From positions 124,001-188,000 of the forward strand of contig JAUIIL010000005.1 of the NCBI GenBank assembly GCA_030431635.1: a stretch of 64,000 nucleotides of DNA, in the 5' to 3' direction. Positions 40,429 to 44,996 of the stretch are shown piece by piece (positions within the stretch are counted from its first letter, which is position 1; each line of letters starts with the position of its first letter). Both the position numbers and the translations under genes were made by a program. Source of the stretch: Bacteriovoracia bacterium (GTDB lineage: Bacteria > Bdellovibrionota > Bacteriovoracia > Bacteriovoracales > Bacteriovoracaceae). Below the pieces are notes generated by a model. That model made no database searches. It was not told the origin of the DNA and worked only from the letters and a program-made list of their open reading frames with translations.

Positions 40429-41157
40429 CTAACTGTTTGTTTTTCTTTGAAAAGTGATAAGTAAAAGAACACTTGTAAAAACAACAAATGCCACCCACTG
40501 CGAAGTTGATAGGCCATAGTAAAGCCCTCTAATTTTATCTCCCCTGAAGAACTCTAAGGAAAACCTCAACAAGGCATAAGAAGCCATATAGCTTAAAATC
40601 ACTTTTATCTGAGGGACTTGAGAGTTAATAAGCCTTAAAAGAAAAAAACCAATAATAACAAGCCCAAAGCCCTCATAGAGTTGTACTGGATGCCTTAGCT
40701 CTCCATGTAGATGAATTGACCAAGGAAGTTCACAAACGGTTCCATAGCAACAACCGGCCATAAAACACCCGACTCTCCCAATTGCATGAGAGAAAGCCAG
40801 GGCCGGTAAAAAATAGGCCATTTTTTTTAACGAGAATTTTTTTAAAACCAAAGTATAAAATAAAGTAAAAAATAGACTGAAAACAAATCCACCATAAAAA
40901 ACAAAGCCCCCTCCTAACCAGAAAGTTGTATTTGTTTTTAAGTGTGTTTGCCCTGAAGTTAACAAGAAAAAAACTTTAGCTCCCACCCAAGAACAAATAA
41001 AAATACTCCAAAATAAAAAAGTAAATCCTTTTGAGGAAACATTGTTTTTTTCAAGCAGATATTTAGTGAAATGAAAAGCAAATCCCCAAGCAAGACCCAT
41101 CAATAAAGGGTAAGAATAAATAATAAGTTCTGAGGTTTTAAAAAGAACGGGCCACAT
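40429..41157 (-). CDS. lgt: Prolipoprotein diacylglyceryl transferase
   Basis: Transfers diacylglyceryl from phosphatidylglycerol to the lipobox cysteine, the first step of lipoprotein maturation, in the inner membrane. The motif HAIGRVGCFMAGCCYG holds the essential His and Arg, and the seven helices give 242 residues. The segment RHPVQLYEGFG is also standard. The start is taken at MWPVLFKTSEL (41157), which matches other Lgt N-termini; the gene overlaps the end of the upstream LspA-like gene by 20 bases. Confidence 0.94.
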   Translation of the reverse strand: MWPVLFKTSELIIYSYPLLMGLAWGFAFHFTKYLLEKNNVSSKGFTFLFWSIFICSWVGAKVFFLLTSGQTHLKTNTTFWLGGGFVFYGGFVFSLFFTLFYTLVLKKFSLKKMAYFLPALAFSHAIGRVGCFMAGCCYGTVCELPWSIHLHGELRHPVQLYEGFGLVIIGFFLLRLINSQVPQIKVILSYMASYALLRFSLEFFRGDKIRGLYYGLSTSQWVAFVVFTSVLLLITFQRKTNS

Positions 41158-41599
41158 GAGTTTTCTTCTTTTGGAGATAATCAATCAAGGCCAATAAAAA
41201 GCCTGAGGTAATAAAAGTATGTGCTAAGTTAAACTTAAGCTTAAAAGATGCAATTCTAAGCATAAAAAAAAGCGAAATATAATCATGGGTTAATGAATCA
41301 AGAAGATTACTAAATAAACCAGAAGAAACAAGAACAATCGCTATCACTAGCAAGAAATTTTTTTTCAAAAATTTGATTAAAAAAGCAAAAAGAGAAATCA
41401 AAAAAATAATCAACATGAGATTGTAAATATTTTGTCCTATTAGCAGAAATAAACTTCTTTCATTAGTTAAATAGAAGGTATTTTTAACCAAGGGCAGTTG
41501 TTCACCAAGAAAAAAGGTGCTTTGAATAGCACCTTTAAAAAGTTGGTCTGAGAGAATTAAACAAACGCTTAGAACTGATAACTGCCAGAACCGTCCCAT
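41138..41599 (-). CDS. LspA-like protein lacking a catalytic aspartate
   Basis: A 153-residue, four-helix inner-membrane protein with the layout of signal peptidase II: LSDQLFKGAI, LPLVKNTFYLTNERSLF, SNLLDSLTHDYISLF and FNLAHTFITSG. In active LspA the last motif is FNxAD and the two Asp residues form the aspartyl dyad. Here the first Asp (101) remains, but the second position is His127. The NxGaaF motif is also altered. It is probably not an active signal peptidase II; a true LspA should be encoded elsewhere. It lies between the response regulator and lgt. Confidence 0.75.
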   Translation of the reverse strand: MGRFWQLSVLSVCLILSDQLFKGAIQSTFFLGEQLPLVKNTFYLTNERSLFLLIGQNIYNLMLIIFLISLFAFLIKFLKKNFLLVIAIVLVSSGLFSNLLDSLTHDYISLFFMLRIASFKLKFNLAHTFITSGFLLALIDYLQKKKTHVARSF

Positions 41600-41607
41600 T
41601 ATTTGAC

Positions 41608-43095
41608 CTAATAAAAGTCTTTTGGAGTCAGTTCGTATTTTTCAATTTTTCTTAAAAGCGTTTTCTTGGGAATATTCGCGTTCAAAGCGGTTTGATTGAT
41701 TTTACCTTTATTAAGCTTAAGGGCTTGAGTAATGAATTCTTTTTCAAATTCATCTTTGGCCTTTTGAAAATCAAGCTTAACATCATCATCTTCAGTTTTA
41801 ATTCCAAAGGTGAACTGAAAATCTCTAAGAATATCATCTCCTTCAGTATCTAAAACAGAATCCTTAATGGCCTTAATATCAATAATGCTTTCGTCTTTCT
41901 CTTCAAAGCTCGGAGTATTTCCTAAAACACTGCCTGGAAGAGAGCCTTTTGTAATGACGTCACCAGACTCCATAATAAAACAATGCTCAATAACGTTTCT
42001 AAGTTCTCGAATATTTCCTGGCCACTTGTAGGCATCAAATAGTTTTTGAGCTTCAGGATCAAGTCCCTTCATTTGCAGGTTGTGAACATTATTAAAATAA
42101 TTAAGATAATAATTCACAAGGTGGGGAATATCAGAGGTTCTCTCCCTTAAAGGAGGGAGATAAACAGGTAGAACATTCAGTCTATAGAAGAGATCTTCTC
42201 TAAAAGTTCCATCTTTGATCATCTCTTCAAAAGGTTTATGTGAAGCTGCAATGATTCTTACGTCAGAAGAAACCTCACGGTTAGAACCAACTGGTGTAAA
42301 CTTCTTTTCTTGCAACACTCTTAAAAGCTTCACCTGCATAGCAAGTGGGATATCTCCGATTTCATCAAGAAAGAGAGTTCCTCCATCAGCATATTGAAAC
42401 TTACCAATTTTTCTTGCGTCTGCCCCGGTAAAAGCTCCCTTCTCGTGCCCAAATAACTCTGACTCAATAAGAGTTTCAGGAATGGCCCCACAGTTAATAG
42501 TGACAAACTTATTATCTTTTCTTGGCCCATTAAAATGAATGGCTTTAGCTACGAGCTCTTTCCCTGTTCCCGATTCTCCTCGAATAAGAACTGGAGTTTG
42601 AACTTTGGCCAGTCTTGAAATGATATCAAAAACTTTCTTCATGACATTAGATTCACCAACAAATTTATCATCTGAAGAGTTCTCATTGCTTAAAGAAAGC
42701 ATTGGTGCAGAAAACGCTGTTGTTTCAACGAGGGAGCGGGCTTTAAGAGCTCTCTTAATAAGAGCAACTAAGTTCTCTGAGGAAATCGGTTTTTCGAGAT
42801 AGTTATAAGCACCCTCTTTCACTGCTTTAACAGCATCAGAGACATTTGAAAAAGCTGTGAGAATAAGAACAATAATTGATGGATCGTGCTTTTTTATTTC
42901 TACCAAAGCTTCCAGTCCATCCATCTCCGGCATATTCACGTCCATGACGACGAGGTCATACTTCTCTCTATAGACAGCATTAACAGCTTCTTTTCCATTA
43001 TCAGCAACATCTACGACAAAATGATGATATTCAAGGGCCTGTCTAACAGAGCTCTGTAAAACCTTATCATCATCAACAACTAATACCTTATGCAT
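41608..43095 (-). CDS. Sigma-54-dependent NtrC-family response regulator
   Basis: A 495-residue activator. The receiver has phospho-acceptor Asp52 in VVMDVNMPEMDG; the AAA+ domain has GESGTGKELVAKAIH and GHEKGAFTGAD near residue 222, which contacts sigma-54; the C-terminus has a Fis-type helix-turn-helix (INQTALNANIPKKTLLRKI). It lies directly downstream of the CHASE2 histidine kinase, its likely partner. Its targets are unknown. It is 9 bases from the LspA-like gene, so envelope genes share its operon. Confidence 0.95.
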   Translation of the reverse strand: MHKVLVVDDDKVLQSSVRQALEYHHFVVDVADNGKEAVNAVYREKYDLVVMDVNMPEMDGLEALVEIKKHDPSIIVLILTAFSNVSDAVKAVKEGAYNYLEKPISSENLVALIKRALKARSLVETTAFSAPMLSLSNENSSDDKFVGESNVMKKVFDIISRLAKVQTPVLIRGESGTGKELVAKAIHFNGPRKDNKFVTINCGAIPETLIESELFGHEKGAFTGADARKIGKFQYADGGTLFLDEIGDIPLAMQVKLLRVLQEKKFTPVGSNREVSSDVRIIAASHKPFEEMIKDGTFREDLFYRLNVLPVYLPPLRERTSDIPHLVNYYLNYFNNVHNLQMKGLDPEAQKLFDAYKWPGNIRELRNVIEHCFIMESGDVITKGSLPGSVLGNTPSFEEKDESIIDIKAIKDSVLDTEGDDILRDFQFTFGIKTEDDDVKLDFQKAKDEFEKEFITQALKLNKGKINQTALNANIPKKTLLRKIEKYELTPKDFY

Positions 43096-43121: not shown

Positions 43122-44996
43122 TTATTCATTTTTCAGCTTAACTGTAAAGGTTGTTCCTATACCAAGCTGAGACTCTACTCCAATCTTTCCCTGATGAAGC
43201 TCGACAAAGTATTTTACCAAATAAAGACCAAGGCCTGAACCTTTGATTTTGTGACTCGAGTCATTTTTAACCCGGTAGAACTTATCAAAAACGTGCTCGA
43301 GATCATCGGGATTAATCCCTACACCATTGTCTTTTATCTCAATATAGACCCATGTGTCATCATCCCATGTACTAATTTCAATCGTAGAGCCCTCTCCGGA
43401 GTATTTAATAGCGTTTTCCACAAGGTTAGAAATAACTCTGATGATTAACTCAACATCAACTGTTATTGGATAGAGTGGAGAGAGGTTGGTTTGAAAGGCT
43501 ATTCTACTTGAGTTGGCCTCAAATTTAAGTTTTTCAATGACATTCTCAATAATAGTGTTCACATCTTTTGAAGCCATTTTTAGTGTGAGTTCTCGACTCT
43601 CGATTTTTGTTAAATCAAGAATGGAAGTAATAAACTTATTAAGCTCTTTGGTAGAATTAATGATATTTTCAATCAATTGTTTCTGTTCTTTGGTGTTTTC
43701 GTATTGAACATTCAAGATATCAGCGATTCCTGCAATTTTGGCCACAGGGGTTTTAAGGTCATGGCTCATTAAAGAGATAAAATTTCTTTTAAGGTTATCA
43801 ACTTGTTTTAAAAGTTTGGCTTCTTCTTCAATGGCGTAACGAGTTTGGTACTCACCAATGGCCCTAAAAGGAACCCAAATATAGTAAACTACAAATATAC
43901 CTAATATAATGTGAGATATTTTTAGCCAAATACCGCCTACGCTAAAGAGGAGATATGTCCCTACAAAAGCTCCTAGCATAATCATAATAGTAATAAAGAG
44001 TCCCTTCGTAGGCCTAACCTTGGAAATAATGTAGGAGAGAAAAATAGCAATTAAAATTGAAAAAATATCTGAAACAAAATCAGGGACTTGGTAGATAGTT
44101 TTGCTTTGAGCAAGAGCTTCCATGATGACAGCATGTAAACTCATCTTCGCAGACTTCGTTCCTTCTTTTCTAAAAGGAGTTTTAACAAAATCAGCAGAGT
44201 TGGCCGCATACTTTGGGCCAATCAAAACGTACTTATCTTTAAAAAAACCAGAAGGAATCGCAAAAACACGATGAAAAGGTATCTTTATAATCTCAGATTC
44301 TTCTTCATTGGGATTAGTATAAAAACGATAAAGGGCAAAAGTAGCGTCAGCCTCTTCGTTGTAATAAGAACCTTTATAGGAGTGAGCTGTTAAAGAAGGA
44401 AGATCTCTTTTACTTCTTATGAAATTCCCCATTTGTAAATGAAACGAGTCCTCTCCTGATATGTTAAGAATAGCTCTTCTTGAAACTTCATCCTTTGCAA
44501 AAACTTGTCCATCCTGGTTAATATGTCCAAGGGCATAGCCAAGCTCTCTTAACTCTTTTGGAGGAAGTTGTTCCCCCCAGGAATCAATGTCTGTTGCAAA
44601 AAGAAATTGCCCGCCTTTTTTTTGGTAGTCTAAGACCAGATCTTTAAACTCTTTGTAGTAGACTGTGTCTATTTTAGAATCAGGTTCAAGAAGTTCAACA
44701 AAATAGTTAATGCTTGATGGCCCATCACTTATTATTTTTTTCAGTAATCTCGAGTGAGTTGCATAAGTATAAGGGTAGACTTCTCCTAGAAACTCATCGC
44801 TCTCTTCATCTAAGGTAATTACGACGTAGTTTTTATTCTCTTTTAATCCAAGGTCTGTTTTTATCCATAAATCATAAAAAATAGCATCTAGTGTTGAGAA
44901 GGAATATTGAATTAGAATAAGTATAAAAACAATTGTGAAAAACAATGGATAGTAGTTGTTATTCTCAATACTTTTTAACCTTGTTTTAAAATCCAT
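43122..44996 (-). CDS. CHASE2-domain sensor histidine kinase
   Basis: A 624-residue membrane kinase. A membrane helix near the start (about 16-33) is followed by a CHASE2 extracytoplasmic sensor (with YFVELLEPDS and VLIGPKYAANSADF) and three closely spaced helices near 310-380. The kinase core has H-box LMSHDLKTPVAK near residue 412, the N-box NLVENAIKYS, and DNGVGINPDDLEHVFDKFY with GSGLGLYLV. It is complete and sits one gene upstream of the response regulator. The CHASE2 ligand is unknown; the adjacent M48-like gene is a candidate partner. Confidence 0.93.
   Translation of the reverse strand: MDFKTRLKSIENNNYYPLFFTIVFILILIQYSFSTLDAIFYDLWIKTDLGLKENKNYVVITLDEESDEFLGEVYPYTYATHSRLLKKIISDGPSSINYFVELLEPDSKIDTVYYKEFKDLVLDYQKKGGQFLFATDIDSWGEQLPPKELRELGYALGHINQDGQVFAKDEVSRRAILNISGEDSFHLQMGNFIRSKRDLPSLTAHSYKGSYYNEEADATFALYRFYTNPNEEESEIIKIPFHRVFAIPSGFFKDKYVLIGPKYAANSADFVKTPFRKEGTKSAKMSLHAVIMEALAQSKTIYQVPDFVSDIFSILIAIFLSYIISKVRPTKGLFITIMIMLGAFVGTYLLFSVGGIWLKISHIILGIFVVYYIWVPFRAIGEYQTRYAIEEEAKLLKQVDNLKRNFISLMSHDLKTPVAKIAGIADILNVQYENTKEQKQLIENIINSTKELNKFITSILDLTKIESRELTLKMASKDVNTIIENVIEKLKFEANSSRIAFQTNLSPLYPITVDVELIIRVISNLVENAIKYSGEGSTIEISTWDDDTWVYIEIKDNGVGINPDDLEHVFDKFYRVKNDSSHKIKGSGLGLYLVKYFVELHQGKIGVESQLGIGTTFTVKLKNE

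What the first reader, a model, noticed from the sequence alone, without database searches (positions are those of the whole stretch)
41138..41599. LspA-like protein with His in place of a catalytic Asp
The FNxAD motif reads FNLAHTF, so the second Asp of the aspartyl dyad is His127, and the N-x-G-a-a-F motif is changed. An essential enzyme would not tolerate this, so a second, canonical LspA is expected elsewhere.
Basis: partly seen in the sequence, partly recalled or inferred. Interest (0 to 1): 0.55.

Follow-up and report, generated by a model that had tools for sequence, protein, structure and literature searches.

The report
Worn-out spare copy of LspA peptidase
This gene is the old copy of an essential lipoprotein-cutting enzyme; it has lost both catalytic acids while the same bacterium carries a second, intact copy elsewhere, so the anomaly is real but has an ordinary evolutionary explanation.

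Summary
The essential Arg after the conserved Asp is Ser. In purified S. aureus LspA, D118N, D136N and R110A each give 0% activity, so this protein is almost certainly not a signal peptidase. As predicted, the genome holds a second LspA with a full motif set (contig 16).
The gene sits in a family-wide cluster: CHASE2 kinase - NtrC-type regulator - lspA - divergent lgt. In 100 of 100 scorable relatives lacking the second LspA type ("x"), the copy at this place keeps its motifs. In 23 genomes with x, it is degenerate in 10 (this one included) and absent in 4. So a resident LspA erodes or is lost where another LspA can do the job. It still has an open frame and a confident predicted LspA fold, and a related genus keeps a motif-altered copy under purifying selection, so a non-proteolytic role beside the Lgt-like protein remains possible but unproven. 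Moderate to low interest.

The parts
41138..41599 (-). degenerate LspA (Peptidase_A8), 153 aa, both catalytic Asp replaced; stop codon included
41270..41272 (-). codon CTT, Leu110, at the place of the first catalytic Asp (Asp118 of S. aureus LspA)
41219..41221 (-). codon CAT, His127, at the place of the second catalytic Asp (Asp136 of S. aureus LspA)
41294..41296 (-). codon TCA, Ser102, at the place of conserved Arg110
40429..41157 (-). Lgt-like gene (N146C class), likely ATG start at 41157, overlapping the lspA end by about 20 bp; the mechanical ORF 40429-41184 starts at TTG
   Evidence: PF01790 120 bits; sequence; a match at E<=1e-8 in 105 of 129 family genomes
41608..43095 (-). NtrC-type response regulator (receiver, sigma-54 activator, Fis HTH), conserved upstream neighbour
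43122..44996 (-). CHASE2 sensor histidine kinase, conserved upstream neighbour

Best explanation
The gene is the resident lspA of this bacterial family, still in its ancestral place between an NtrC-type regulator and an Lgt-like gene (shown by synteny). A second LspA lineage ('x', NxGAWG type, here on contig 16) is present and keeps the whole catalytic site (shown), so it most likely does all lipoprotein signal peptide cleavage (inferred). Freed from that duty, the resident copy evolved quickly and lost both catalytic aspartates and the active-site arginine; it cannot cleave by the LspA mechanism (inferred from published mutants). It is still an open frame with an LspA-type predicted fold. I read it as a catalytically dead relic on the way to loss, kept open partly by residual constraint and perhaps by overlap with the downstream lgt-like gene (inferred). 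That it is dead and displaced I hold at about 0.9; that it also has no important present role, about 0.6, which is the confidence given here.
For: Both Asp and the Arg replaced. In S. aureus LspA, D118N 0%, D136N 0%, R110A 0% (passages of PMC6952399). Canonical second LspA in the genome. Of 125 family genomes tabulated, 100 without x have an intact copy at this place and none a degenerate one; with x 10 degenerate, 4 absent, 9 intact; 2 not scorable. By genus 6 of 11 with x against 0 of 37 without, Fisher p 3.8e-5. All 21 x sequences form one side of a branch, SH-aLRT 99. End branch 2.42 against 0.47 for the relative G034's copy in the LspA tree, but 0.30 against 0.37 in the neighbouring regulator.
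Against: The tree-aware paired test does not reach significance (5 starred pairs, median p 0.5); the state needs only 5 changes on that tree. The frame is fully open: under neutral drift to 47% identity only 1 of 300 simulated genes was stop-free, so pure neglect over the whole branch is unlikely. Conserved columns are kept more often (15 of 32) than variable ones (22 of 81). The predicted fold is confident, though the alignment itself carries that fold.
Confidence: 0.6

Rival explanations
1. Functional pseudoenzyme: the dead LspA is kept as a membrane protein that binds lipoprotein precursors or the neighbouring Lgt-like protein, for example as chaperone, specificity factor or inhibitor.
For: Open frame, confident LspA fold (Z 19.4), neutral simulation against pure drift. 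In genus g61 (7 genomes) the copy at the same place keeps both Asp where readable but has Asn133 to Ser and other motif losses, yet pN 0.20-0.34 for the pairs listed against near-saturated pS 0.71-0.88, so it is under purifying selection, close to that on Lgt2.
Against: LspA and Lgt2 are separable: g8 (3 genomes) and G033 keep Lgt2 without this LspA, G003 keeps the LspA without Lgt2. The window lineage has no close relative held (genus search: 1 genome, its own), so selection after the loss of the Asp cannot be measured.
Confidence: 0.3
2. Active protease with a new site, using His127 and another residue in place of the aspartate dyad.
For: The Asn of FN-x-A, D18, K22, N98 and D101 are kept; a His sits exactly where Asp should be.
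Against: Both Asp and the Arg are lost, each essential alone in S. aureus LspA; no other copy among the 159 tabulated shares the His replacement; a canonical LspA is present.
Confidence: 0.04
3. Decoy or regulator for LspA-directed antibiotics (globomycin, myxovirescin), as proposed for extra LspA copies in a producer.
For: M. xanthus has four lspA paralogues, two in the myxovirescin cluster and thought to limit self-harm (passage of PMC8689077).
Against: The antibiotics lodge between the two catalytic Asp and bond to Asp136 and Arg110 (PMC6952399 passages), all missing here. Antibiotic clusters were not searched for.
Confidence: 0.03
4. Sequencing or assembly error, or a non-gene.
For: An A8 homopolymer lies beside codon 110.
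Against: Motifs on both sides of the homopolymer read in one frame; Asp to Leu needs two base changes; the cluster is syntenic in relatives and similar decay recurs in G059 and G003. Reads were not available.
Confidence: 0.03

Closest known systems
LspA, lipoprotein signal peptidase II (Peptidase_A8; PDB 6ryo/6ryp, 5dir)
   Same: Sequence family (46.8 Pfam bits); four helices plus beta-strands predicted, Z 19.4 and 2.4 A over 151 residues to 6ryp; DQxxK, N-x-x-D and FN-x-A kept
   Different: Both catalytic Asp, the essential Arg and the Gly of the N-x-G loop replaced; below the TIGR00077 cut-off
Myxococcus xanthus lspA1-lspA2-lgt operon and lspA3/lspA4 (PMC8689077, passages read)
   Same: Several LspA paralogues in one genome; lspA in one operon with an lgt
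   Different: Those are described as housekeeping peptidases or as having peptidase activity; here one copy has lost its catalytic residues
Divergent Lgt with N146C (Leptospira interrogans Lgt, M. smegmatis MSMEG_5408; PMC13251419, passages read)
   Same: The neighbour P0002 has GRVGCFMAGCCYG (Cys at N146 and at E151) and Tyr for H103
   Different: Here it is a second Lgt-like gene next to a dead LspA; the genome also has a canonical Lgt on contig 15
Pseudoproteases arising after gene duplication (general concept, recalled)
   Same: Fold kept, catalytic residues lost, active paralogue present
   Different: I found no described LspA pseudoenzyme in the searches named in Tried and rejected

Membership tests
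LspA (functional lipoprotein signal peptidase) | Sequence membership of Peptidase_A8 | tested here: met
   PF01252 46.8 bits, cut-off 25
LspA (functional lipoprotein signal peptidase) | Catalytic aspartate dyad (Asp118 and Asp136 in S. aureus numbering) | tested here: not met
   Leu110 and His127
LspA (functional lipoprotein signal peptidase) | Remaining 12 highly conserved residues | tested here: not met
   9 of 12 kept by the alignment (lost G54, R110, V116), 8 of 12
LspA (functional lipoprotein signal peptidase) | NCBI equivalog TIGR00077 cut-off | tested here: not met
   29.3 against 73.95; the contig 16 copy scores 105.5
LspA (functional lipoprotein signal peptidase) | LspA fold | tested here: met
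   pLDDT 94.5; Z 19.4 to 6ryp; the input alignment contained LspA homologues
LspA (functional lipoprotein signal peptidase) | Peptidase activity on prolipoprotein | not testable with these tools
   needs an assay
Pseudoenzyme (pseudoprotease) | Catalytic residues lost, fold kept, intact paralogue present | tested here: met
   (all by sequence or prediction)
Pseudoenzyme (pseudoprotease) | Kept by selection for a non-catalytic role | tested here: inconclusive
   neutral simulation against pure drift; no close relative to test; loss in parallel lineages

The most novel reading that the evidence does not exclude
A conserved, non-proteolytic LspA-fold protein works with the N146C-type Lgt in the kinase-regulator cluster, as a precursor-holding partner or gate of a second lipidation route: in g61 the same-place protein keeps the dyad but has changed substrate-site residues under purifying selection, and in the window lineage it has gone on to lose catalysis altogether.
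Probability: 0.22. Interest if true: 0.55.

Novelty: new variant of a known kind. Interest (0 to 1): 0.33.

Why it matters
It also gives a readable natural series of an essential membrane protease being replaced: intact copy beside another, altered but selected copy, dead copy, empty place. That series helps annotators (such genes should not be called lspA) and offers a candidate pseudo-LspA next to an unusual Lgt.

Tried and rejected
Reading as an essential enzyme with a new site: rejected because a canonical LspA is present and three essential residues are gone. Frame or sequencing error: no support in the sequence. Horizontal origin of the x copy: not settled; LspA sequences similar to x (E down to 1.6e-31) occur in other families of the phylum, and x neighbours are partly shared among G081, G059 and G016, so either old duplication or transfer fits. 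Tree-aware association test: not significant. dN/dS for the window gene: not possible, no relative close enough; within g61 synonymous sites are near saturation, so only pN below pS is claimed. The LspA tree places the window row weakly (support 45, long branch); orthology rests on synteny. Terminator-like hairpin in the gene: the scan found 4 sites against 4.8 expected by chance, and 5 of 118 same-place genes have any such hairpin; treated as chance. Literature: searches listed no paper on an LspA homologue lacking the catalytic Asp, judged from the titles and abstract starts shown (each matched more papers than were listed); one search matched none. Not examined for the copy at this place: 4 of 129 family genomes (G029, G091, G126, G130); G025 and G138 not scorable. 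The RR tree used 58 of 120 genomes with a regulator of 300 aa or more; that left out G001 and G148. G148 carries an x gene that matches G089's in score and motifs, probably contamination, and was left out of the genus count but not of the genome count. G085 was counted as having x from a partial fragment.

Full report
Observation. The ORF at 41138-41599 reads on the minus strand and encodes 153 residues. Pfam Peptidase_A8 covers residues 11-142 at 46.8 bits, and phmmer finds only LspA structures among its significant matches, best 6ryo at 1.8e-6. The alignment to S. aureus LspA shows FNIAD as FNLAH and VVDF as ISLF. So His127 replaces Asp136 and Leu110 replaces Asp118; Ser102 replaces Arg110.

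Consequence. In purified S. aureus LspA, D118N, D136N and R110A each have 0% relative activity and N133A 3% (Table 1 of PMC6952399, passages read). Loss of the first three residues in one protein makes cleavage by the known mechanism very unlikely. This is inference from a homologue; no assay of this protein is known to me.

The predicted second LspA exists. A whole-genome search with PF01252 gives two matches at E<=1: this one and contig 16, 1155-1586, 115 bits, whose ORF has DQLTK, ENRGAWG, GNIIDR, YVIDF and FNIAD. It passes the TIGR00077 equivalog cut-off; the window protein does not. The next gene on contig 16 is an FtsK homologue. The genome also has a canonical Lgt on contig 15 besides the Lgt-like gene next to the window LspA.

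Place and relatives. The order CHASE2 kinase - NtrC-type regulator - lspA - Lgt-like gene, usually with a ferredoxin and an IcmF-like mutase (the mutase name is recalled) nearby, recurs in the 17 genomes inspected for it (18 loci), with the losses told below. I fetched LspA loci from 125 of 129 family genomes and read the 14 conserved residues in 159 distinct copies, 3 of them from outside the family.

Pattern. Copies next to the regulator or the Lgt-like gene are intact (at least 13 of 14 residues, or the part present in one cut gene) in 100 genomes that lack the x type of LspA. In the 23 genomes with x, the copy is degenerate in 10, absent from its place in 4 and intact in 9; 2 genomes could not be scored. 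The degenerate set is this genome, G059 (first Asp lost), G003 (first Asp lost) and seven g61 genomes (both Asp kept where readable; G086 is cut by a contig end before the second; Asn106 and Asn133 to Ser, Val116 to Thr or Ser). By genus 6 of 11 with x show decay or loss against 0 of 37 without (Fisher p 3.8e-5). Against this, the genera are not independent: on the regulator tree decay or loss needs 5 changes, and the tree-aware pair test has too few pairs to be significant.

Tempo. The window row has an end branch of 2.42 in the LspA tree, against 0.47 for G034, its nearest row by path. In the regulator gene next door the two branches are 0.30 and 0.37. So the LspA sped up and its neighbour did not. 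The place of the window row in the LspA tree is weak, and I rest orthology on synteny. All 21 x sequences form one side of a branch (SH-aLRT 99).

Is it just junk? The frame is open. In a simulation that let the gene drift neutrally, 97 of 300 runs were stop-free at 90% identity, 18 at 75%, 2 at 60% and 1 at 47%; 47% is the share of highly conserved columns the protein still keeps (15 of 32). The AlphaFold model is confident (mean pLDDT 94.5) and matches LspA structures (TM about 0.8; Z 19.4), although the alignment that fed it was of LspA homologues. In g61, pN of 0.20-0.34 for the listed pairs against near-saturated pS shows purifying selection on a motif-altered copy. A role therefore cannot be excluded. 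But three g8 genomes and G033 lack the gene at this place while keeping the Lgt-like gene, and G003 lacks the Lgt-like gene while keeping a degenerate LspA, so an obligate LspA-Lgt pair is not general. The end of lspA overlaps the likely ATG of the Lgt-like gene by about 20 bases, which could keep the frame open by coupling; this is an idea, not a result.

Comparison. Extra LspA copies are known: M. xanthus has four, two in one operon with lgt (PMC8689077, passages read). Divergent Lgt proteins with Cys at N146 are known (PMC13251419, passages read), and the 80 loci kept of 313 in the scan show relatives of the Lgt-like gene in many phyla. I found no description of an LspA pseudoenzyme in the searches listed. 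Verdict: observation confirmed, prediction of a second LspA confirmed, explanation ordinary in kind (replacement and decay of a duplicated essential enzyme), with a modest open question whether the dead copy still does something.

Noticed in passing
L087 1450-2325, also L088-L092: A long LspA type (273-309 aa open frames): Peptidase_A8 at the N-terminus followed by about 150 residues with a conserved stretch (LSHKxxGPxYAFE...) that looks HAMP-like to me (recalled; Pfam names nothing there in the one tested). Seen in several genera of the family, not found in this genome.
   Followed up: partly
L095-L102 (genus g61): The LspA at the same place keeps both catalytic Asp where readable but has Ser for the Asn of FN-x-A-D and of G-N-x-x-D-R, under purifying selection: possibly an LspA with altered specificity.
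   Followed up: partly
window 41536-41513, minus strand: Perfect 9-bp hairpin followed by a T run inside the dead lspA, terminator-like; not more than chance by number.
   Followed up: partly
L204 (G078) and L248 (G133): Tandem lspA-lspA between the regulator and the Lgt-like gene, reminiscent of the tandem lspA1-lspA2 of Myxococcus.
   Followed up: no
G110 contig 22, 3088-3555 (L226): A further LspA-like match listed with two stop codons inside the match.
   Followed up: no
window 40429-41157: Lgt-like protein with GCCYG motif; relatives in Clostridia, Bacteroidota, Aminicenantes, Acidobacteria and Elusimicrobia among the 80 kept loci; role beside a canonical Lgt unclear.
   Followed up: partly
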